From the NCBI GenBank assembly GCA_022652545.1, contig JALCRM010000005.1, forward strand, positions 62,001 through 126,000: 64,000 nucleotides of DNA, given 5' to 3'. Every line of letters starts with the position of its first letter. The stretch's first letter is position 1. The stretch is from Lachnospiraceae bacterium (GTDB lineage: Bacteria > Bacillota > Clostridia > Lachnospirales > Lachnospiraceae). The notes beneath the pieces were generated by a model that searched no databases, was not told the DNA's origin, and saw nothing but the letters and a program-made list of their open reading frames with translations. The position numbers and the translations under genes are program-made. Positions 2,655-21,067 of the stretch are shown in pieces.

Positions 2655-2882
2655 TTACTCTTCCTTCAGTCTCTGCACCATCGCGTAAAGTGCGGCCGCG
2701 CTGTTGAAGTTTTTCGGCACGATCTCGGACGCCGGTATGGAAATATCGTATTCGTCGTTGAGCGCGCTGATGATCTGCAGGATATCGAAAGAATCCAGCA
2801 CGCCGGCATCGATCAGGTCCGTACGGTTTTCAAAATCCACATCTTCCTTGATATCCTTAAGTATTTCAATGATCCTGTCCAT
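2655..2882 (-). CDS. DltC-like acyl/aminoacyl carrier protein
   Basis: A 75 aa, four-helix carrier protein with the phosphopantetheine site GVLDSFDILQ; Ser31 would carry the prosthetic group. The block around it (DSFDILQIISALNDEYDISIP, then a SEIVPKNF segment) is closer to DltC, the D-alanyl carrier, than to fatty-acid ACP. The frame is open far upstream, but the ATG at 2882 has GGAGG four bases ahead and matches the family start. It is the last gene of a five-gene cluster (MBOAT, SGNH protein, adenylation enzyme, decarboxylase, carrier), so it should accept the amino acid activated by the enzyme encoded at 4133-5680. The true cargo is unknown. Confidence 0.88.
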   Translation of the reverse strand: MDRIIEILKDIKEDVDFENRTDLIDAGVLDSFDILQIISALNDEYDISIPASEIVPKNFNSAAALYAMVQRLKEE

Positions 2883-2911
2883 TTCAGCCTCCGTTGCATT
2901 GCCCTGTGTTT

Positions 2912-4132
2912 TTACGATGTTTCCTGTTCCCGTGTCCTGTACTGCGGACAGTTGAGACTGCTCGTCTCCGTGAAGCCGCGGACCTTCAGGACATCCGGGC
3001 CGCCGTCCTTCACTCCCCTGTACAGCAGGATCTCCGGCATCGTGCGGCTGAGAAACAGGTAAATACCTTCCGTAACAGAATAAGCCCCGATGCCGCAGAA
3101 TGCAAGGACGTCGCCCGTGCTCAGCGCCGTGAACGGCACTTCGCGCACCAGTACGTCCGCCGTCGTGCAAAGGCTCCCGCAGAGCGTCCAGGCACTTGTG
3201 CCTGATCCGCGGGGCTCGAATTTCAGGTGCCGGATCACGGGGATCTTCATGCCCATGATCTGCCCGAAATACGTCAGATGGTTCATGCCTCCGTCCAGGA
3301 TGCAGTAATTTTTTCCTTCCGCTTCCTTGAGGTCGTCCACTCTCGTCAGGTAATATCCGCATTCCGAGACGAAGAACCTGCCCATTTCCACCGTCAGGTC
3401 CGCCCACATCGCGGCGGAAACGAGGTCCCCCGCCAGTTCCTTCAGCGGCCGGAGCGTGTCCGAGCGGTCGTCCTTTTCAAAATAGGGATACGGGAGTCCC
3501 GGCCCGTACTCCAGCTTCGGCAGTGCAACGCGGTAGGCGCTGCGGATCTCCGAAAACAGCTGCCGCAGCATCTCCAGTTCCTGCCTCTGTTTTTCAGGCG
3601 CCCTGCGCTGCGTGCCGGCAAAATAATGAATGCCTTCAAACGACAGATGCGGATAGCGGTCACTGTGCGCGAACATCCACAGGAGATCGTCTCTGCTCAT
3701 GCCGAACTGGCTGCCTGCGTTCAGACGCAGCAGCACGGGGATCTTCCTCTGTGCCTGCGCGGCCCCTTTTTCAAGCAGGTCGGCCTGTCCCGTGGACTCC
3801 GCGGTAAAAATACCGGCACCGTAAGAGATCGCTTCCGCAATGTCGGCAGGCTGCTTGTTGACGCCCGAATACACGATACGCGACGGGTCCGTCTTCAGTT
3901 TCTCAGTGATCGCGAGTTCTCCCGGGCTGCAGACCTCCACTCTTTCCGTCAGTGCGGTCATGGCCGGCACGAGGAACGGGTTGGCCTTCATCGAATAGCA
4001 AAGGTGCACGTTCTCCCCGACGATCTCCTTTGCCGCCTTCATGCGTTCATAGAGCGCCGTCTCGTCAAACACGAACGACGGCGTGCCGTATCCTGCTGCG
4101 AGCAGCTTCAGTGTTTCATCATTGAGTGCCAT
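2912..4132 (-). CDS. Fold-type III PLP-dependent decarboxylase (LysA/BtrK-like)
   Basis: A 406 aa alanine-racemase-fold PLP enzyme of the diaminopimelate/ornithine decarboxylase family. YSMKANPFL carries the PLP lysine (Lys49). VEMGRFFV fits the phosphate-binding E-x-G-R segment. CGSLCTTADVL corresponds to the CESGD block, with the Cys kept but Glu replaced by Thr; DVLAFCGIGAYS is the late dimer-interface motif. It follows the adenylation gene directly (TAA then ATG) with a GGGAGG ribosome site and precedes the carrier gene. A LysA role is less likely, given the active-site change and the setting. BtrK of butirosin synthesis, of this family, decarboxylates an amino acid already bound to a carrier protein, and that is the model suggested here. 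Racemase activity is another option. Confidence 0.82.
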   Translation of the reverse strand: MALNDETLKLLAAGYGTPSFVFDETALYERMKAAKEIVGENVHLCYSMKANPFLVPAMTALTERVEVCSPGELAITEKLKTDPSRIVYSGVNKQPADIAEAISYGAGIFTAESTGQADLLEKGAAQAQRKIPVLLRLNAGSQFGMSRDDLLWMFAHSDRYPHLSFEGIHYFAGTQRRAPEKQRQELEMLRQLFSEIRSAYRVALPKLEYGPGLPYPYFEKDDRSDTLRPLKELAGDLVSAAMWADLTVEMGRFFVSECGYYLTRVDDLKEAEGKNYCILDGGMNHLTYFGQIMGMKIPVIRHLKFEPRGSGTSAWTLCGSLCTTADVLVREVPFTALSTGDVLAFCGIGAYSVTEGIYLFLSRTMPEILLYRGVKDGGPDVLKVRGFTETSSLNCPQYRTREQETS

Positions 4133-5680
4133 TTAATGCCTCCCTGCTTTGTATGCCTCTTCCAGCTGCTTCCGGTCGATCTTGCCGTTCTTTGTCATGG
4201 GCATCTCCTCCAGCGGATACAGCGCATTCGGCAACATGAACTGCGGCAGCGTGGTGCGCAGCTCGTGCATGAGCTCTGTTTTGTCACGTCCGCCCGTATA
4301 AAACAGCAGGAGGCGCTTTCTGTCCGCATCGTACAGACAGCATGCTCTGGAAACGCCTTCCGCAGCCATGGCGTTGTTCTCGATCTCGCCGAGCTCGATC
4401 CTGTGCCCCAGGTGCTTGATCTGGAAATCCTTGCGCGAAACATAGATGAGCAGGCCGTCCGCATCGTACTTTCCGATATCTCCCGTCCGGTACATCATTT
4501 CCGTGAAGTCATGGTTCAGCGGGTTCGGCATGAAAGCCGCGGCCGTCCGTTCCGCGTCACGGTAATATCCGAGCGCCAGACAGGTCCCGCAGACGCAGAT
4601 CTCGCCCTGCTGCTCCTTCTCTGTCACCTCCCGGTCATCGTCGCCCAAAAGGAACACCTTTTCGTTCGGGAAGGGGCGGCCGGCAGGTATGACATCCGTG
4701 CCCTCAAACGCGCGGTCCAGAATGTAATACGTGCAGTTGCAGGTGATCTCCGTGGGGCCGTACAGATTGACATACACGGCATCCGGAAGATATTTCTGCC
4801 AGATCTTAAGCTGTTTTACGGGCATGACCTCCCCGCTGAACATGACGAGGCGCACCGTTTCCGGGGTGCGGTAATCGAGACCGTTCATGATGGAGACAAA
4901 ACACATGGCGCTCACCGCCCATATGAGCACGGTCGCTTTTTTCACGGAAAGGTAGTCCATTAGCACGGTCGGGCTGCTGAAATATTCGCGCGGGATGAGC
5001 TGCACCCTGGCTCCCGCCATGAGGCCGCTGTAAATGTCCTTGACGGACACGTCAAAGTCGAACGGCGCCTGGTTGGCCAGGATGTCGTCTTCCCGTATTC
5101 CGAAGATCCTCGTGAAGTGGTCGATGAATTCGATGACGGAACGGTGGCAGACCGCCACGCCCTTCGGCAGGCCTGTGCTGCCGCTTGTGAAATTCACATA
5201 CAGCGGGTCCGTATCGAGAGCTTCCGCCCGTACCGCCGCGAGCAGCTCTTCGTCCGGGGCCGTGGAAAACAGCGCATCGAGGCGGAAGATCTCCCCTGAG
5301 AACTGCAGGGCACGCGCCTTCTCTTCGTTGGCTTCGTCCGTAAGGAGCACCTTCGGAGACAGCGTCTCCAGGATCTTCTCCGTGCGTACCGAAGGCTGCC
5401 TGGGATCCAGCACGCTGTAGAAACCGCGGGCCGACACTGCTCCCAGCATGCCTGCCATCGCCGTGCAGCTCTTCTCCAGGTAAAATGCCACCGGCTCGCA
5501 GCCGTGCGTCACGGTCCTGCCGCCTGCCGCGTGCAGCTTCGGAATGAGGAAGGTGGCTGCGGCGTCCGCCTTCTTCTTCAGTTCTCCGTAGGTAATGACT
5601 CCGTCGGGATCTCCGAACGCCACGGCACCGGGGCGTTCCCGCACATCCTTTTCCAGCATTTCCAGCACATTGTAGATCAT
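4133..5680 (-). CDS. DltA-like amino acid adenylation enzyme
   Basis: A stand-alone ANL-superfamily adenylation enzyme of 515 aa that would activate an amino acid with ATP and load it on the downstream carrier protein. Core motifs are intact: FTSGSTGLPKG (about 164-174), NLYGPTE, YRTGD, LGHRIELGEIE and NGKIDR with the catalytic Lys500. QAPFDFDVSVKDIY resembles DltA, whose equivalent Asp binds the substrate amino group. The segment MFSGEVMP has Ser where DltA has the Cys tied to D-alanine choice, so the substrate may differ. An ATG at 5695 overlaps the upstream stop (ATGA) but has no ribosome site; the ATG at 5680 follows GAGGGGCAGGAGA and is preferred. Confidence 0.85.
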   Translation of the reverse strand: MIYNVLEMLEKDVRERPGAVAFGDPDGVITYGELKKKADAAATFLIPKLHAAGGRTVTHGCEPVAFYLEKSCTAMAGMLGAVSARGFYSVLDPRQPSVRTEKILETLSPKVLLTDEANEEKARALQFSGEIFRLDALFSTAPDEELLAAVRAEALDTDPLYVNFTSGSTGLPKGVAVCHRSVIEFIDHFTRIFGIREDDILANQAPFDFDVSVKDIYSGLMAGARVQLIPREYFSSPTVLMDYLSVKKATVLIWAVSAMCFVSIMNGLDYRTPETVRLVMFSGEVMPVKQLKIWQKYLPDAVYVNLYGPTEITCNCTYYILDRAFEGTDVIPAGRPFPNEKVFLLGDDDREVTEKEQQGEICVCGTCLALGYYRDAERTAAAFMPNPLNHDFTEMMYRTGDIGKYDADGLLIYVSRKDFQIKHLGHRIELGEIENNAMAAEGVSRACCLYDADRKRLLLFYTGGRDKTELMHELRTTLPQFMLPNALYPLEEMPMTKNGKIDRKQLEEAYKAGRH

Positions 5681-5691
5681 TCTCCTGCCCC

Positions 5692-6765
5692 TCATCCGAG
5701 CGGTACGAAAAGGCCGCTCATATCTTCCGTCTCAGCCTCTTTGAGAAAGGCCGCGAGCATCCGGGAAAAAGCTTCCGCCCCGGCTGTGTTCATATGTCCG
5801 TTGTCCTTGTAGCCTGTCAGGGCTGCCGTATAGTAGCTGCTGTCCACCGTGTTGAAATCGTAATACGAAAAGCCGTATTCCGCAAACAGGTCCGTCAGTT
5901 CCTGCTGTGCTTTTTTGTAGGTATCCAGGGAATAGATCCGCAGCCAGTTCGGATAAGGCACGGAGATCGCCGTCAGCTCTATTCCTTCCTTTCTGCAGTA
6001 GGACGCCAGCTTTACGAGGTCGGCGCGGTTGCTGTCCGAAAGGGAAAGGTCAATGATCTGCGCCGCCGTCGCATCCCACTCCTTCGCCTGCGCAGGCGAA
6101 ATGTAAAAGTCGTCCGGGACCATGATCTCGTCGGAAGGATAAAAGCCTTCTGCGTCCCTGTGTCCGCTCTCGTCCAGTACGCGTCCCGCCAGCTTTTCCC
6201 TGACATTGCTGCGGATGGACATGTCCCGGTCGTAGACCCAAGGGAAGAAATAGCTGACGGAGCCCGGCTTTCCGAAAAAGGCAGGATCCGTCAGGAAACC
6301 GCAGGCTGCCGTAAGGCGCAGGAAGGGTGAAAGGCCGCTTTCATACGCCTTTTCAAAACTGGCCTCCGCGCGGAAATTCTCGTATCTGTCGCTGCCCAGC
6401 ATCTCATAGTCTACGACAAACACGACCCGCTTCACGCCCTTTTCCTCCGCAGCCGCCTTTACTGCCAGGCAGGAGTTGTGGAAGGACTGCATGTTGGAGC
6501 CCATATTGTAGGACCTGGTGCCGAGGACCGCGTCGACGGCATCCGGCTTCAGCGCACTGATGCACTGCGAGGAGCCCACATACACGAGATCCAGGCTGTC
6601 TTTGGCCCTGAAGTATTTCCACATCTCGGCACCGGAACCGAGAAACGGTTCAAAGAGAAAATTCAGCAGGAGGTTCAGGCACACGAAAATAACGAGAAAG
6701 GAAACACAGGTCACGGCCCTGTGCGCACCCTGCCGCTTTTTGACTTCCGGCTCAGAAATTCGCAT
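5692..6765 (-). CDS. SGNH-fold membrane-anchored protein (DltD/AlgX-like)
   Basis: A 357 aa protein with one N-terminal membrane anchor (about residues 18-40, FLVIFVCLNLLLNFLF) and an extracellular SGNH-hydrolase-like domain. LDLVYVGSSQC holds the block I Ser, and KDNGHMNTAGAEAF near the C-terminus is the DxxH-type block V. Proteins of this shape (DltD, AlgJ/AlgX, PatB) work with MBOAT transferases in moving acyl groups onto surface polymers. The start is the ATG at 6765, 14 bases inside the MBOAT gene, preferred over an upstream open stretch in the same frame. It overlaps the adenylation gene by four bases if that starts at 5695. The exact family was not identified. Confidence 0.75.
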   Translation of the reverse strand: MRISEPEVKKRQGAHRAVTCVSFLVIFVCLNLLLNFLFEPFLGSGAEMWKYFRAKDSLDLVYVGSSQCISALKPDAVDAVLGTRSYNMGSNMQSFHNSCLAVKAAAEEKGVKRVVFVVDYEMLGSDRYENFRAEASFEKAYESGLSPFLRLTAACGFLTDPAFFGKPGSVSYFFPWVYDRDMSIRSNVREKLAGRVLDESGHRDAEGFYPSDEIMVPDDFYISPAQAKEWDATAAQIIDLSLSDSNRADLVKLASYCRKEGIELTAISVPYPNWLRIYSLDTYKKAQQELTDLFAEYGFSYYDFNTVDSSYYTAALTGYKDNGHMNTAGAEAFSRMLAAFLKEAETEDMSGLFVPLG

Positions 6766-8323
6766 ACAGGAACCCTCCCGCGCTCTCGGTGAACATGAAG
6801 GAAGCAAGGAGCAGGAAGACCAGCAGGTACAGCGCGCAGAAGCGCAGGGCTGCGTTCGTCCCCGCCAGCTTTCCGTATACGTCGCTCTTCCGCTCTTTCA
6901 TGACACTGACGGCAAAGATCACTGCCGTACCTGCCGCTGCGACTGCCATGCCGCCCAGCGTATAGGCCGGCTTTGCGACATTGATATTGAGGATCTTTCC
7001 GGTGAAGGCCGTCCCGAATTCGGACGCACGGAACCGGAAGAATGTGTTGTAGAGCGCCGTAAGACTCTCCCTGAAATCGGTAATGCGGTCAAAATACCAG
7101 CCGATATTCACGATCAGGAAGGTCCGCAGGATGCGGAACAGGTGAAAGCCCTTCGTTTCGGTCCGGATCCGCAGTTTCTCCGACAGACCCCGGAAAGCGG
7201 GCTGCAGGATGTCGCTGAGCGCAATGACGATGCCGTTGTAAAGTCCCCAGACAACATAGTGCATCTGCGCGCCGTGCCAGATCCCGACGAGGAAAAACAC
7301 CAGCAGATTGGCGATGCCGGCCGGCAGCACGCGTCCGAAATGTCTGCCCAGCTTCCTGCCGCACCACTTTCCGAAGCGCTGCATGGGCTTCAGAAGCGCA
7401 AAGGGATAGAACACGTAATCGCGCATCCACTGTCCGAGCGTAATGTGCCAGCGCCGCCAGAAGTCCCCGAGCGAAACGCTGAAATACGGCTGCCGGAAGT
7501 TGGGTGCCATCGCGATGCCGAAAAGCTGCGAAACGGCCATCACCATGTCGATGCCGCCCGAAAAATCGGCGTACTGCTGTATGGAATACAGAAGGATCGA
7601 AAAAGCGGTCAGGGAACCGGGCACATCCTGCAGGGAACCGTCGAGGACCGCAGCAATGTCCCCCGACAGCATGTCGGCGACGGCGTATTTTTTCATGGCC
7701 CCGAATGCAAACAGGAGCAGCGCCCTTTTTGCGGTCTCCGACCGAAAGGTATGCTCGGAAAGGAGCTGCGGCTCCAGCCTGTCATAGCGGTTGATGGGCC
7801 CCTGGATCAGCTGCGGGAACCAGGACACAAAGAGCAGGAATCTGAAGTAATTCCTGTCGGTCCTGCATTTCCCGCCGTAGGCATCGATCAGACAGCCGGC
7901 CGCCTGGAAGGTGTAGAACGAAATGCCGAGAGGCAGCAGCAGATGCAGGCCGCCGGTCGAAGGAAAAAGCACATTCCAGTACTTCAGCCAGGCCAGGATG
8001 CCGAAGTTGAAAAGCAGCGCCAGCACGAGCACTGTTCTCTTGCCGCGCTGTGCCTGCCGTCTGCGTTCCTTTTTTTCTTCCGGCTTTACCCCGCCGGAAA
8101 CAGCCTCCCTGTATGCATCTTCGATCTTTGTGATGTGGCCGGCAGCCGCCCAGACCGTGAAGGACGTGAGGAGCAGAAAAAGAAGGTTCTTCCAGCCCTG
8201 CAGGCAATAAAACGCCAGACTCGCTGCCAGCAGGCAGATCCACTGCCTGCGGCGGAAGACCGTGTAATAACAGATAAGCGTGACGATGACGAACAGAAAA
8301 AATGCGAGTGAATACAGTTCCAT
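6752..8323 (-). CDS. MBOAT family O-acyltransferase (DltB/AlgI-like)
   Basis: A 523 aa polytopic membrane protein of the membrane-bound O-acyltransferase family. Family landmarks are FWRRWHITLGQW (His293) and FFLVGIWHG with the catalytic His350, plus PLGISFYTFQ near residue 131. DltB moves D-alanine from DltC across the membrane; AlgI does the same job with acetyl groups. Presence of a dedicated carrier and adenylation enzyme downstream argues for an aminoacyl rather than acetyl cargo here. It starts seven bases after the sigH stop with an AAAGGTG ribosome site, so the cluster is probably read from the housekeeping block upstream. Confidence 0.88.
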   Translation of the reverse strand: MELYSLAFFLFVIVTLICYYTVFRRRQWICLLAASLAFYCLQGWKNLLFLLLTSFTVWAAAGHITKIEDAYREAVSGGVKPEEKKERRRQAQRGKRTVLVLALLFNFGILAWLKYWNVLFPSTGGLHLLLPLGISFYTFQAAGCLIDAYGGKCRTDRNYFRFLLFVSWFPQLIQGPINRYDRLEPQLLSEHTFRSETAKRALLLFAFGAMKKYAVADMLSGDIAAVLDGSLQDVPGSLTAFSILLYSIQQYADFSGGIDMVMAVSQLFGIAMAPNFRQPYFSVSLGDFWRRWHITLGQWMRDYVFYPFALLKPMQRFGKWCGRKLGRHFGRVLPAGIANLLVFFLVGIWHGAQMHYVVWGLYNGIVIALSDILQPAFRGLSEKLRIRTETKGFHLFRILRTFLIVNIGWYFDRITDFRESLTALYNTFFRFRASEFGTAFTGKILNINVAKPAYTLGGMAVAAAGTAVIFAVSVMKERKSDVYGKLAGTNAALRFCALYLLVFLLLASFMFTESAGGFLYANF

Positions 8324-8329
8324 GCACCT

Positions 8330-8947
8330 TTACCCGTTCTGCTTCAGTTTGCGGCGGATGCGCTGCAGCGCATTGTCGGTGGATTTCTCACTGCGTCCCA
8401 GCCTGCGGGCGATCTTCGTGTAGTCAGGATCCTCGATGTACAGTTCCAGGACCTGTTTTTCAAAGGGGCTCAGTTCCTCTTCTATGCGTCCCAGCAGGCT
8501 GTCCACGTTTTCCCTGTCGATAAGCTGCCGCTCCGGATCCGGCGTTGCCGGGTTCTCCAGCGTTTCGGACAGGCTGCTGCGCTGATCGCCGCTGCCGTCC
8601 GCGCTGTCGAATTCTTCATAGATCGACACGGCGGTATTCAGCGGTATGTTCTTTTTCCGGCTGCCTGCTTCGACTGCCGTATACAGATGCCTCATGACAC
8701 AGAGCTCCGCAAAGGTGCGGAAACTTGCGCCGCCTTCCTCACTGAAGCCGCGGATGGCCTCAAACAGGCCGATCATGCCCTCCTGGATCAGGTCTTCGGT
8801 GTCGGAGCCGGGGACATACATCGCCCTGGCCTTGCGGCGGACGAGGTCCTTGTACCTCCCGAGCAGAAAATCCGTCGCATCTTTGTCGTTTTCCTCTGCG
8901 GACAGGCGCCGGAGCTGCTCGTCCGTCATCGATGCGTAATCTTTCAC
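8330..8947 (-). CDS. sigH: RNA polymerase sigma-H factor
   Basis: A 205 aa sigma-70-family factor. EDLIQEGMIGLFEAIRGF is region 2.1-2.2, and the C-terminal ELSPFEKQVLELYIEDPDYTKIARRLG leads into the region 4 helix-turn-helix. The size and the cysS-mrnC-rlmB-sigH order identify it as the Firmicute SigH (Spo0H), which directs stationary-phase and early sporulation genes. The start is a GTG overlapping the rlmB stop (GTGA); an ATG seven codons on (8929) is possible but lacks a ribosome site. In many relatives secE-nusG follow; here the MBOAT cluster follows instead. Confidence 0.88.
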   Translation of the reverse strand: MKDYASMTDEQLRRLSAEENDKDATDFLLGRYKDLVRRKARAMYVPGSDTEDLIQEGMIGLFEAIRGFSEEGGASFRTFAELCVMRHLYTAVEAGSRKKNIPLNTAVSIYEEFDSADGSGDQRSSLSETLENPATPDPERQLIDRENVDSLLGRIEEELSPFEKQVLELYIEDPDYTKIARRLGRSEKSTDNALQRIRRKLKQNG

Positions 8948-17969: not shown

Positions 17970-18012
17970 AGAACTGCCGGCCGGCAGATCAACGGTTCAA
18001 CGGGAGTTGTGT

Positions 18013-19494
18013 ATGCAGTTCATATCCTATTCCTTCCTGCTGTTTTTTCCGGCCGTCATATTGATCAATTTTCTGCTGCCTGTAAAAGTCCGCCGCATCT
18101 GGGTGCTTCTTTCGAGCTATTTCTTCTACTCGTGCCTGCGCCCGGTGCTCGGACTTTTTCTTGTCCTCGTCACCCTCATCGGCTATTTCTCCGGCCTTGT
18201 CCTCGGAAAGGGCCGCAAAAACAGCCTGCCTGCAAAAAAGCAGCACACGGCCCTCGTCTTCTGCGTCTGCCTGCACCTCGCTCTGCTGGCCGTGCTTAAA
18301 TACACCGGCATGGCCGTTTCCACCTTCAGCGCTCTTTCGAGCGCCGCAGGCCTGCAGACCTCTTTCAGCGCCCCCGGAATCCTGCTGCCGGCCGGCATTT
18401 CCTTCTATATGCTCCAGTCGCTCGGCTACTGCATCGATGTATACCGCGGCAGTATCGAAGAAGAACATGATCTCCTTGGTTTTGCCCTCTTTGTCTCCTT
18501 CTTCCCCTGCGTGCTCTCCGGCCCCATCGAACGCGCCGGTCACATGCTGCCTCAGTTCGCCGCCCCGCCTTCCTTCCGGTATGAAAACATGCGCGACGGC
18601 CTGCTGCGGATGGTCTGGGGCTTTTTCCTGAAGCTCGTGCTGGCCGGGCGGCTGGCCGTCATCACCGACACCGTATTCGGCGATCCCGGGAACTACAGCG
18701 GAGGCATTCTGGCAGCTGCGGCGCTGCTGTATACCTTCCAGATCTACTGCGACTTCGACGGCTACACGAACATCGCCATCGGTGCCGCGCGCGTCCTGGG
18801 ATACGAACTGACCGAGAACTTCAGGGCGCCTTACCTCTCCGCCTCCGTCGGCGAATTCTGGCGCCGCTGGCATATCTCGCTTTCCTACTGGTTCCGCGAC
18901 TATCTGTACATTCCGCTCGGCGGCAACCGCAGGGGCACGCTCCGCAAATACCTCAACATCCTTGTTGTGTTCGCTGTGAGCGGCCTGTGGCACGGCGCCG
19001 GATGGACGTTCGTATTCTGGGGCGCGCTGCACGGCCTCTACCAGGTCGCCGGCTTCCTTCTCCGGCCAGTGCGGGATTTCTTCGTACGTCTGTTCAGGAT
19101 AGACCGCGGCTCTTTTTCCCACCGCCTGGCCAGCGTTGCGCTCACGTTCTTCCTGGTCTCCTTTGCCTGGATCTTCTTCCGCTCTCCCGATCTGAAGACC
19201 GCTTTTCAGATCGTCCGGGGCCTCGGCTCCTTTGAACCCTGGGTGCTGTCCGACGGATCGCTGTACGGACTCGGCCTGGACGCCGCCAATTTCAACCTGA
19301 TGCTGATCGCGCTCTGCGTGCGGATCGCCGTTGACCTTTGTACCCGCAGGGGCATCGTCCTGCGCAATGTCATCACTTCGCAGGCGATCTGGCTGCGCTG
19401 GCTGATCTATATTTCTGCCGTGATCCTGATACTGCTGTGCGGCATGTGGGGCCCCGGCTACAATGCCGGAAGCTTCATCTACGCACAGTTCTGA
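18013..19494 (+). CDS. MBOAT family O-acyltransferase (AlgI-like), second copy
   Basis: A 493 aa polytopic membrane acyltransferase. PAGISFYMLQSLGYCIDVYRG, split over residues 126-145, FWRRWHISLSYWFRDYLYIPLGG (about 282-304) and GLWHGAGW with the catalytic His327 are all typical of AlgI. It resembles the AlgI/PatA acetyl-transfer branch more than the MBOAT at 6752-8323, notably in YIPLGGNRRG. The ATG at 18013 has GGGAG six bases ahead. With the SGNH protein that follows eight bases later, it probably O-acylates a surface glycan; there is no carrier-protein gene nearby. Confidence 0.9.
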   Translation: MQFISYSFLLFFPAVILINFLLPVKVRRIWVLLSSYFFYSCLRPVLGLFLVLVTLIGYFSGLVLGKGRKNSLPAKKQHTALVFCVCLHLALLAVLKYTGMAVSTFSALSSAAGLQTSFSAPGILLPAGISFYMLQSLGYCIDVYRGSIEEEHDLLGFALFVSFFPCVLSGPIERAGHMLPQFAAPPSFRYENMRDGLLRMVWGFFLKLVLAGRLAVITDTVFGDPGNYSGGILAAAALLYTFQIYCDFDGYTNIAIGAARVLGYELTENFRAPYLSASVGEFWRRWHISLSYWFRDYLYIPLGGNRRGTLRKYLNILVVFAVSGLWHGAGWTFVFWGALHGLYQVAGFLLRPVRDFFVRLFRIDRGSFSHRLASVALTFFLVSFAWIFFRSPDLKTAFQIVRGLGSFEPWVLSDGSLYGLGLDAANFNLMLIALCVRIAVDLCTRRGIVLRNVITSQAIWLRWLIYISAVILILLCGMWGPGYNAGSFIYAQF

Positions 19495-19501
19495 GGCTGC
19501 C

Positions 19502-21067
19502 ATGGACGGATCTGAAAACATGCAAAACATGAATAACAGAAAAACACGTCAGAAGTCCCGCAGGCGCGGGCTGCGGCTGTTCCTGCTGTCCCTGCTCTTT
19601 GCGGCGCTGCTTTCTTCGGCGATCCTCGCTGCCATGACCGTTGTCCAGCGCAAGGAGAGCCGCTACAAATACGCGGATTTCTTCGGGGCCGCCAAAACAG
19701 GCAGCATCGACGTGCTGCTCCTCGGGTCCTCCCACGTCATCAACGGGATCGATCCTGTGCAGCTCTACGAGGACTACGGCATCACTTCCTACAACATGGG
19801 CGGACACGGCAGCATGCTGCCTTCCACCTACTGGACGCTCCGGAACGCGCTCGATTACTGCACGCCCCGCTACGTCGTGATCGACACCTACATGCTGGAA
19901 AAGGACTTCCGCTGCCTCGATGACGCAGCCAATGACGGAGATCCTTCCACCTCGGTGGAACAGCTCCACCTCAACATGGATGCTTTCCCCGTTACGGCAA
20001 CCAAGATCGCCGCGCTGAATGACCTGATCGCCAGCCCGGACACGCGCCGCAGTTTTCTGTTTGACTTCGAGATCTACCACAACCGCTGGGAAGAACTGAA
20101 TGCCGACGATTTCCGCCGCCTGTCCGGCACCGATGACCGCAACAGCCGCATGGGCGCCGAAATACGCAGCGGCGTCGACATTTCTTCGGAAGCTCCCGCC
20201 CCGGTCGATCCCTCCCTGCGCTTTGACGCCCCCACCGTAGGCGAAGATTATCTGAACAGAATGCTGGATCTCTGCAGCGAACGCGGGATCACGCCAATAC
20301 TTACCTATCTTCCCTTTGCCTACGCACAGGAAAAAGATTTCCGGGCTGCGCACGAAACCGCTTATATCGCCGCCCGGCGCGGCATACCTTTCCTCGACCT
20401 GATCGAAACGGACGGCCTTATAGACTACGGCACCGACATGAACGACCGCGGGCATCTGAACCGCTCCGGCATGTACAAGGTCACGGCTTTCATCGGGACC
20501 TGCCTGCGCAGCGGCACCGATCTGGCCGACCGCCGCGGCGACCCTTCCTGCTCCCTGTGGGAACAGGAAGCAGCGCGGAGCGATACAGAGCAGGAAGAGA
20601 AAGAACTGGATCCGGATTCCCTGTACAGCGAGCTTCTGGATCTTTACGGTACGAAAAATGCGAGCTGGCTCATCACCTTCCCGGCAGGCTCCGAACTGCT
20701 GCACGATCCGGAAGCCATGCGCCTGCTCTCCCAGCTCGGCACACCGTCAGCCGTACAGCAGGCGGCTGCCTCCGGCGGCCCCTACTTCCTCATGCATGAC
20801 GGCACTTCCGGCAAAACATACGAATGGTCCGGACCTGCACAGCCCGAACCATTCGATACCCTTCTGGGTTCCGTTACCTATATCGGCGCGCCTGACTTTC
20901 AGGCTGTCTACCTTGACGGCAGGGAAGACAACAACCTTCTCGACATGGAGGAACACTACAGTAGTGACCTGCAGCTTCTCCTCTTCGACAATGCCGACAG
21001 TTCCGTCCTCACGCACCTGTGCTTTGAAGCAAAAGGTCTGGACTACGAAATGGCGCAGGCCGACTGA
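19502..21067 (+). CDS. SGNH-fold membrane-anchored protein (AlgJ/AlgX-like), second copy
   Basis: A 521 aa protein with an N-terminal basic stretch and one membrane helix (about residues 23-45). LLLGSSHVINGI holds the nucleophile block of an SGNH hydrolase and DRGHLNRSGMYK the DxxH block near residue 325. About 175 further residues follow, acidic at first (TEQEEKELDPDS) and then globular, which the partner at 5692-6765 lacks. Partner proteins of MBOAT enzymes pass the acyl group to the polymer. The start at 19502 is the first ATG after the MBOAT stop. Its stop lies in a long stem shared with clpB downstream. Confidence 0.72.
   Translation: MDGSENMQNMNNRKTRQKSRRRGLRLFLLSLLFAALLSSAILAAMTVVQRKESRYKYADFFGAAKTGSIDVLLLGSSHVINGIDPVQLYEDYGITSYNMGGHGSMLPSTYWTLRNALDYCTPRYVVIDTYMLEKDFRCLDDAANDGDPSTSVEQLHLNMDAFPVTATKIAALNDLIASPDTRRSFLFDFEIYHNRWEELNADDFRRLSGTDDRNSRMGAEIRSGVDISSEAPAPVDPSLRFDAPTVGEDYLNRMLDLCSERGITPILTYLPFAYAQEKDFRAAHETAYIAARRGIPFLDLIETDGLIDYGTDMNDRGHLNRSGMYKVTAFIGTCLRSGTDLADRRGDPSCSLWEQEAARSDTEQEEKELDPDSLYSELLDLYGTKNASWLITFPAGSELLHDPEAMRLLSQLGTPSAVQQAAASGGPYFLMHDGTSGKTYEWSGPAQPEPFDTLLGSVTYIGAPDFQAVYLDGREDNNLLDMEEHYSSDLQLLLFDNADSSVLTHLCFEAKGLDYEMAQAD

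What the first reader, a model, noticed from the sequence alone, without database searches (positions are those of the whole stretch)
2655..8323. A dlt-like surface-decoration operon with a built-in PLP decarboxylase
Seen: five minus-strand genes with gaps of under 30 bases or overlaps encode an MBOAT acyltransferase (His350), an SGNH-fold anchored protein, a DltA-like adenylation enzyme, a LysA-fold PLP decarboxylase and a DltC-like carrier (Ser31). Known: DltABCD attach D-alanine to teichoic acids without a decarboxylase; in butirosin synthesis BtrJ loads glutamate on the carrier BtrI and BtrK, of this PLP family, decarboxylates it while bound. Inference: this operon may load a dicarboxylic amino acid (Glu or Asp), decarboxylate it on the carrier to GABA or beta-alanine, and transfer it across the membrane to a polymer. 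That would be a new kind of aminoacyl surface modification.
Basis: partly seen in the sequence, partly recalled or inferred. Interest (0 to 1): 0.88.

Follow-up and report, generated by a model that had tools for sequence, protein, structure and literature searches.

The report
Surface aminoacylation operon with carrier decarboxylase
[quoted passage not shown] it resembles the known D-alanine system but probably makes a different, undescribed surface decoration.

Summary
In detail: five minus-strand genes at 2655-8323 encode an MBOAT acyltransferase, an SGNH-type protein, a DltA-like adenylation enzyme, a LysA/BtrK-fold PLP decarboxylase (DEC) and a DltC-like carrier. DEC relatives occur in 60 of 299 same-family genomes; DEC is next to adenylation enzyme or carrier in 128 of 133 loci. 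DEC is not the housekeeping LysA: 40 of 40 DEC genomes tested have a separate LysA candidate, and DEC groups with BtrK in a tree. Complete MBOATs over 400 bits in DEC loci all end in a DltX/PatA-type acyl-shuttle hexapeptide (46 of 46, 66 of 66; 0 of 962 other ORFs). The adenylation pocket (Asp213, Lys/Arg219 in 128 of 130) differs from the DltA-like row compared. Against a simple reading, most genomes with an adenylation relative lack DEC, and 10 of 39 DEC-less clusters share the pocket, five with a formyltransferase instead. Best explanation: side-chain loading of Asp or Glu, decarboxylation on the carrier to beta-alanyl or GABA, export via MBOAT tyrosine and SGNH serine to an unknown surface acceptor. 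Substrate, order and acceptor are inferred. My searches of open papers found no description.

The parts
6752..8323 (-). MBOAT acyltransferase (523 aa), His293 and His350, C-terminal acyl-shuttle hexapeptide FLYANF with Tyr520
   Evidence: PF03062 52.5 bits; TIGR04091 DltB 163.3 bits, cut-off 375; residues read; hexapeptide conserved
5692..6765 (-). Membrane-anchored SGNH-type acyltransferase (DltD/PatB role), Ser66, Asp321, His324 counted from the ATG at 6765
   Evidence: Translation and start; 6 of 24 members hit Lipase_GDSL_2 and 1 of 24 DltD, the window protein none; invariant or nearly invariant G, S, D, H columns
4133..5695 (-). DltA-like adenylation enzyme (520 aa), pocket Asp213, Asp215, Lys219, Ser287, Lys505
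2912..4132 (-). BtrK-like fold-III PLP decarboxylase (406 aa), Lys49, Cys322, Thr323
2655..2882 (-). DltC-like carrier protein (75 aa), phosphopantetheine Ser31 (LDSFD)
   Evidence: PF00550 32 bits; Ser conserved 57 of 57
8330..8947 (-). Upstream sigma-70-region gene ending 6 bp before the MBOAT start; possible read-through into the operon, not part of the system
   Evidence: ORF, PF04542 and PF08281, operon layout

Best explanation
A self-contained surface-aminoacylation operon. The adenylation enzyme activates the side-chain carboxyl of a dicarboxylic amino acid (L-Asp more likely, or L-Glu) and loads it on Ser31-phosphopantetheine of the carrier. The BtrK-like decarboxylase removes the free alpha-carboxyl while the residue is on the carrier, giving a beta-alanyl (from Asp) or 4-aminobutyryl (from Glu) thioester. 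The MBOAT protein moves this omega-aminoacyl group across the membrane on to Tyr520 of its own C-terminal hexapeptide; the SGNH protein takes it on its serine and esterifies an extracellular polymer. Shown by computation: gene set, conservation, active-site residues, hexapeptide, separation from LysA, pocket residues. Inferred from precedents: direction of loading, on-carrier order, product, transfer and acceptor. Asp is preferred over Glu only because a GABA thioester tends to cyclise and the operon has no protecting enzyme (chemistry recalled). A beta-alanyl ester would have the same mass as a D-alanyl ester.
For: DEC relatives in 60 of 299 same-family genomes, the window's own included. DEC beside adenylation enzyme or carrier, same strand, in 128 of 133 loci whose layout kept DEC. 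All four partners within 7 kb in 56 of 80 named loci, in variable order. Lys49 61/61, Cys322 60/60, carrier Ser 57/57. DEC profile's best solved relative is BtrK, 213.9 bits, against 172.4 for the best diaminopimelate decarboxylase. Tree: 27 DEC one group 100/100, 13 LysA one group 100/99, BtrK on the DEC side 98/94. Residue after the catalytic Cys is Thr or Ser in 60 of 60 and 80 of 80 DEC, Glu in 13 of 13 LysA. Separate LysA candidate in 40 of 40 DEC genomes tested, of 60. Loose hexapeptide [FLMPIV]xYxx[FY] at the C-terminus of 46/46 and 66/66 complete MBOATs over 400 bits in DEC loci, 0 of 962 other ORFs over 150 aa; the strict FxYxxF in 20/46 and 61/66. The shuttle is shown for PatA and described for DltX in PMC12148441 (passages). 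Pocket Asp213 plus Lys/Arg219 in 128 of 130 DEC-linked adenylation enzymes and 10 of 39 others; 20 of the 130 have lost the canonical amine-binding Asp (Asp215) yet keep Asp213, as expected if the amine is not next to the activated carboxyl. The same pocket in DEC-less clusters suggests that DEC acts after loading, not to make the adenylated substrate. Precedent trios VinN/VinL/VinO and BolO/BolC/BolN (PMC11284099, one section and passages; PMC7756342, passages).
Confidence: 0.6

Rival explanations
1. DEC works on a free amino acid (Asp or Glu) and the adenylation enzyme loads the free product (beta-alanine or GABA); the rest as above.
For: IdnL3 decarboxylates free beta-glutamate before loading in incednine synthesis (PMC11284099, passages), so both orders exist in related pathways.
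Against: Clusters without DEC keep the same pocket (10 of 39); a conserved positive Lys/Arg219 is not needed for beta-alanine or GABA (inference); DEC groups with BtrK, which acts on the carrier-bound substrate; VinN does not accept the decarboxylated acid.
Confidence: 0.15
2. Diaminopimelate or another diamino acid is the substrate: DEC works like LysA, on free or carrier-bound DAP, and the operon attaches lysine.
For: LysA is the best-scoring NCBIfam model (168.9 bits); single-sequence search ranks DAPDC above BtrK; fold tie with DAPDC; two acidic pocket residues could bind two amines (inference).
Against: LysA cut-off not reached (168.9 of 297.9); CExxD Glu and the RPxxY stretch of LysA absent (their roles are recalled); separate LysA candidate in 40 of 40 genomes tested.
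Confidence: 0.08
3. An ordinary D-alanylation (dlt) operon in which DEC is a bystander or serves amino acid supply.
For: Same general gene set; own genome has no other DltA match (one hit, the window gene; assembly 81% complete); two-component genes lie beside the operon in several relatives.
Against: Every Dlt equivalog cut-off tested is missed; pocket differs from the DltA-like row L239 (Ser213, Met219, Cys287) in 128 of 130; DEC adjacent in 128 of 133 loci.
Confidence: 0.1
4. The acylated product is not a polymer ester but a secreted or lipid-linked small molecule, with MBOAT and SGNH as tailoring enzymes.
For: The trio adenylation enzyme, carrier and decarboxylase is otherwise known from secondary metabolism; no polymer-synthesis gene is constant beside the operon.
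Against: MBOAT-SGNH pairs with the shuttle peptide belong to envelope polymer acylation. Flanking genes were clustered but few were annotated, and one locus (L148) has a further 842-aa adenylation-type ORF, so this is weakly tested.
Confidence: 0.07

Closest known systems
Dlt D-alanylation system (DltA, DltB, DltC, DltD, DltX)
   Same: Adenylation enzyme, small carrier, MBOAT with conserved His, SGNH protein, acyl-shuttle Tyr (PMC12148441 and PMC11035591, passages)
   Different: Has a decarboxylase; pocket residues differ from the DltA-like row compared; shuttle peptide is fused to the MBOAT instead of a DltX microprotein; below every Dlt equivalog cut-off tested
PatA/PatB peptidoglycan O-acetylation (MBOAT-SGNH pairs)
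   Same: C-terminal hexapeptide on the MBOAT itself, SGNH partner (PMC12148441, passages)
   Different: PatA uses acetyl-CoA; that paper says MBOAT-SGNH pathways other than Dlt lack a carrier protein, here there is one, with its own loading enzyme
Butirosin BtrI/BtrK (and BtrJ)
   Same: BtrK-clade PLP decarboxylase and carrier; BtrK is the best solved relative of the DEC profile
   Different: BtrJ is not an adenylation-domain ligase (recalled); product goes to an antibiotic, not to the surface
Vicenistatin VinN/VinL/VinO and bolagladin BolO/BolC/BolN
   Same: Adenylation enzyme, free-standing carrier, PLP decarboxylase acting on (VinO) or proposed to act on (BolN) the carrier-bound acid
   Different: Secondary metabolism; no MBOAT-SGNH export is described in the passages seen
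Exosortase A-associated ligase and decarboxylase (TIGR03098, TIGR03099)
   Same: Ligase plus PLP decarboxylase of the same superfamilies
   Different: Both cut-offs missed by far (182.5 of 592.35; 166 of 478.45 bits); what that pair does is not known to me

Membership tests
Dlt D-alanylation system | DltA equivalog (TIGR01734, NF003417) | tested here: not met
   243.6 of 559.85 and 258.1 of 476 bits
Dlt D-alanylation system | DltB equivalog (TIGR04091) | tested here: not met
   163.3 of 375 bits
Dlt D-alanylation system | DltC equivalog (TIGR01688, NF003464) | tested here: not met
   24.4 of 52.35 and 39.3 of 68 bits
Dlt D-alanylation system | DltD Pfam family | tested here: inconclusive
   1 of 24 SGNH members at E 0.0021; window protein none
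Dlt D-alanylation system | Separate DltX microprotein in the operon | tested here: not met
   Junctions leave no room (at most 29 bp); the hexapeptide is on the MBOAT; elsewhere in the genome not searched
Dlt D-alanylation system | D-Ala is the substrate | not testable with these tools
   Pocket differs from the one DltA-like row, L239
MBOAT-SGNH envelope acyltransferase (PatA/PatB type) | MBOAT catalytic His and C-terminal shuttle Tyr | tested here: met
   His350 47/47; window ends FLYANF; loose motif 46/46 and 66/66, strict FxYxxF 20/46 and 61/66
MBOAT-SGNH envelope acyltransferase (PatA/PatB type) | SGNH partner with Ser and DxxH | tested here: met
   Ser65 and Asp320 nearly invariant, His323 invariant in A5; 6 of 24 members hit Lipase_GDSL_2
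MBOAT-SGNH envelope acyltransferase (PatA/PatB type) | Acyl-CoA donor without carrier protein | tested here: not met
   A carrier and its loading enzyme are in the operon
BtrK-type carrier decarboxylase | Sequence kinship with BtrK rather than LysA | tested here: met
   Profile score, tree 98/94 with long branches, CT/S motif; single-sequence score and fold do not favour BtrK
BtrK-type carrier decarboxylase | Acts on aminoacyl-carrier | not testable with these tools
   Carrier gene adjacent; no assay
LysA diaminopimelate decarboxylase | Equivalog TIGR01048 | tested here: not met
   168.9 of 297.9 bits; the family's own LysA candidates also mostly fall under it (3 of 40 genomes over)
LysA diaminopimelate decarboxylase | CExxD Glu | tested here: not met
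   Thr/Ser in 60/60 and 80/80 DEC, Glu in 13/13 LysA
VinN-type side-chain carboxyl adenylation enzyme | Asp230 and Ser299/Arg331 of VinN | tested here: inconclusive
Exosortase A-associated pair | TIGR03098 and TIGR03099 | tested here: not met
   Both far below cut-off; presence of an exosortase not searched

The most novel reading that the evidence does not exclude
This operon is one branch of a modular family of envelope aminoacylation systems in gut Bacillota and Coriobacteriia in which an amino acid is chemically edited while on the carrier before MBOAT-SGNH export: decarboxylated here to a beta-alanyl or GABA group, N-formylated in other branches where a formyltransferase fills the same slot. 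That would be assembly-line tailoring, known from antibiotic synthesis, used for cell-surface decoration.
Probability: 0.5. Interest if true: 0.87.

Novelty: new variant of a known kind. Interest (0 to 1): 0.77.

Why it matters
Dlt D-alanylation is a main way by which Gram-positive bacteria tune surface charge. A second chemistry, in a fifth of the sampled genomes of this family (60 of 299) and also in Coriobacteriia, would widen that to omega-amino acids. Beta-alanyl or GABA esters should be less labile and stay protonated at higher pH than alpha-alanyl esters (chemistry recalled), and a beta-alanyl ester has the same mass as D-alanyl, so it could have been taken for D-Ala by mass alone. It also gives one concrete, testable carrier assay.

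Tried and rejected
Rejected: DEC as housekeeping LysA. My first guess that the C14 paralogue (G000:C14) was LysA was wrong: it lacks the usual lysine context; the LysA candidate is on C9. Rejected: pocket Asp213/Lys219 as exclusive to DEC clusters (10 of 39 DEC-less clusters share it). Not upheld: the strict FxYxxF motif as universal (20 of 46 in set A; the first residue is often L, M or P).

Led nowhere: VinN paper not held; PDB searches to bring VinN into the shown alignments; exosortase literature (no paper); no plasmid match at E 1e-40; promoter scan at chance; structural search tied BtrK and DAPDC. Flanking-gene clusters (top 40 printed, few annotated) gave response regulators and kinases in 18 and 15 of 141 loci and glycosyltransferases in 8 and 4, no constant acceptor gene.

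Literature for novelty: searches (0 papers; 20 of 25 listed; 15 of 36 listed; 5 listed; 1 listed; 10 of 371 listed): listings and abstract starts only, with passages of PMC12419801. None joined an MBOAT/Dlt system with a decarboxylase in what I saw; the library holds open-licence papers only.

Rows dropped or weak: L091 is an outlier counted in set A; L073 MBOAT is cut by its contig; MBOATs at or under 400 bits were not checked for the hexapeptide; set B adenylation enzymes at or under 400 bits were left out of the pocket table (72 kept of 74 loci with one); 7 of 140 DEC loci are not in the adjacency count. The 39 DEC-less adenylation loci are my pick from the list, not all of it. LysA was sought in 40 of the 60 DEC genomes, mostly the more complete ones. 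At least 4 loci occur in both sets (L142/L034, L168/L036, L150/L035, L124/L033, judged by equal scores and, for two, contig lengths), so the sets are not independent.
Full report
What is there. Five minus-strand genes lie at 2655-8323 of the window: MBOAT 6752-8323, SGNH-type protein 5692-6765, adenylation enzyme (ADEN) 4133-5695, PLP decarboxylase (DEC) 2912-4132 and carrier 2655-2882. Junctions are a 14-bp overlap, a 4-bp overlap, 0 bp and 29 bp. Pfam and NCBIfam place four of them as named; the SGNH protein has no hit itself, but 6 of the 24 members scanned hit Lipase_GDSL_2 and 1 hits DltD. None reaches a Dlt, LysA or exosortase-associated cut-off. A sigma-70-region gene ends 6 bp upstream.

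Where it occurs. The host is probably Lachnospiraceae: genomes G145 and G110 of its family have contigs of the same lengths as the named Dorea phocaeensis and Anaerobium acetethylicum records (their family is recalled). DEC at E<=1e-30 is in 60 of 299 family genomes, the window's own included. Across the phylum 6 of 398 genomes match at E<=1e-60, four of them above 460 bits; the other two (about 220 bits, L249 and L250) lie in other surroundings. Set A is 61 loci (window plus 60 fetched): within 7 kb of DEC and on its strand (L037 either strand), ADEN in 58, carrier 57, MBOAT 48, SGNH 47. Set B is the 80 named loci: within 7 kb on either strand, ADEN 74, carrier 73, MBOAT 70, SGNH 64, all four in 56; some of the rest are at contig ends. 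The sets overlap by at least 4 loci. Gene order varies: ADEN-DEC-carrier-MBOAT-SGNH is common, the window has MBOAT first, a Ruminococcus-type group has ADEN-carrier-DEC. DEC is next to ADEN or carrier on the same strand in 128 of 133 loci.

Export part. Of complete MBOATs scoring over 400 bits in DEC loci, 46 of 46 (set A) and 66 of 66 (set B) end in a [FLMPIV]xYxx[FY] hexapeptide; 0 of 962 other ORFs over 150 aa do. The strict FxYxxF form, which the window has, is in 20 of 46 and 61 of 66. In the DEC-less ADEN clusters the loose form is in 31 of 32. PMC12148441 (passages) shows that PatA acetylates this Tyr, describes the same motif in DltX, and says that MBOAT-SGNH pathways other than Dlt lack a carrier protein. 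The present operon thus has the Dlt carrier together with the Pat-style fused shuttle.

A second tailoring enzyme. In 5 of the 10 same-pocket DEC-less clusters (L202, L204, L205, L206, L207) a formyltransferase-like gene sits beside the carrier, between ADEN and carrier in four; PF00551 was checked for L205 and L206, and the profile was built from three of the five. In the other five (L201, L203, L208, L209, L217) I recognised no tailoring gene in that place. Genome G082 has both kinds, DEC-type (L039) and formyltransferase-type (L205). This suggests one core system with exchangeable editing of the carrier-bound residue.

Mechanism. A PLP decarboxylase of this fold needs a free carboxyl beside the amine, so the carrier must hold the side-chain carboxyl (chemistry, recalled). 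The precedents are VinN/VinL/VinO and BolO/BolC/BolN for Asp-type acids and BtrI/BtrK for Glu (PMC11284099, one section and passages; PMC7756342, passages). Asp to beta-alanine is favoured a little over Glu to GABA because a GABA thioester cyclises easily and the operon has no protecting enzyme (recalled). The acceptor is unknown: the commonest flanking clusters are response regulators and kinases, some directly beside the operon, and glycosyltransferases occur in 8 and 4 of 141 loci; the host has one PF00884 gene, most like a phosphoglycerol transferase but below cut-off, and no second DltA match (assembly 81% complete).

Results against. Most ADEN-bearing genomes lack DEC (146 against 60 of 299). 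The pocket is shared with some DEC-less clusters. Single-sequence scores and fold do not favour BtrK over DAPDC. Substrate, order of steps and acceptor are untested. The novelty claim rests on capped listings of open-licence papers and passages of one more.

Verdict.

Noticed in passing
L202, L204, L205, L206, L207: Formyltransferase-like gene takes the place of the decarboxylase in five clusters with the same adenylation pocket.
   Followed up: partly
window 18007-21067 (+); L254:8008-11068: A second MBOAT (C-terminus FIYAQF) and SGNH-like gene pair; no carrier or adenylation gene was found by the profiles in L254.
   Followed up: partly
own genome: Nine MBOAT matches in one 2.67 Mb assembly, so several surface acylations are likely.
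   Followed up: no
L255:6642-7805: A further decarboxylase-fold paralogue of the host in which the stretch of the PLP lysine reads IRTDP, possibly inactive.
   Followed up: no
L048, L060, L077, L078 and 16 rows among L136-L165: Adenylation enzymes that lost the canonical amine-binding Asp (to Ile) but keep Asp213 and have Arg at 219.
   Followed up: partly
most of L210-L227: A DEC-less class of adenylation-carrier-MBOAT-SGNH clusters with a Tyr213/Lys219 pocket, commonest form 14 of 39, substrate unknown.
   Followed up: no
L051, L053, L058, L066, L068, L081, L083: Response regulator and, in six of the seven, kinase genes in the same gene run as the operon, as with some dlt operons.
   Followed up: partly
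L249:7926-9491: BtrK-like decarboxylase followed by a carrier in a 7.3 Mb genome, probably secondary metabolism.
   Followed up: no
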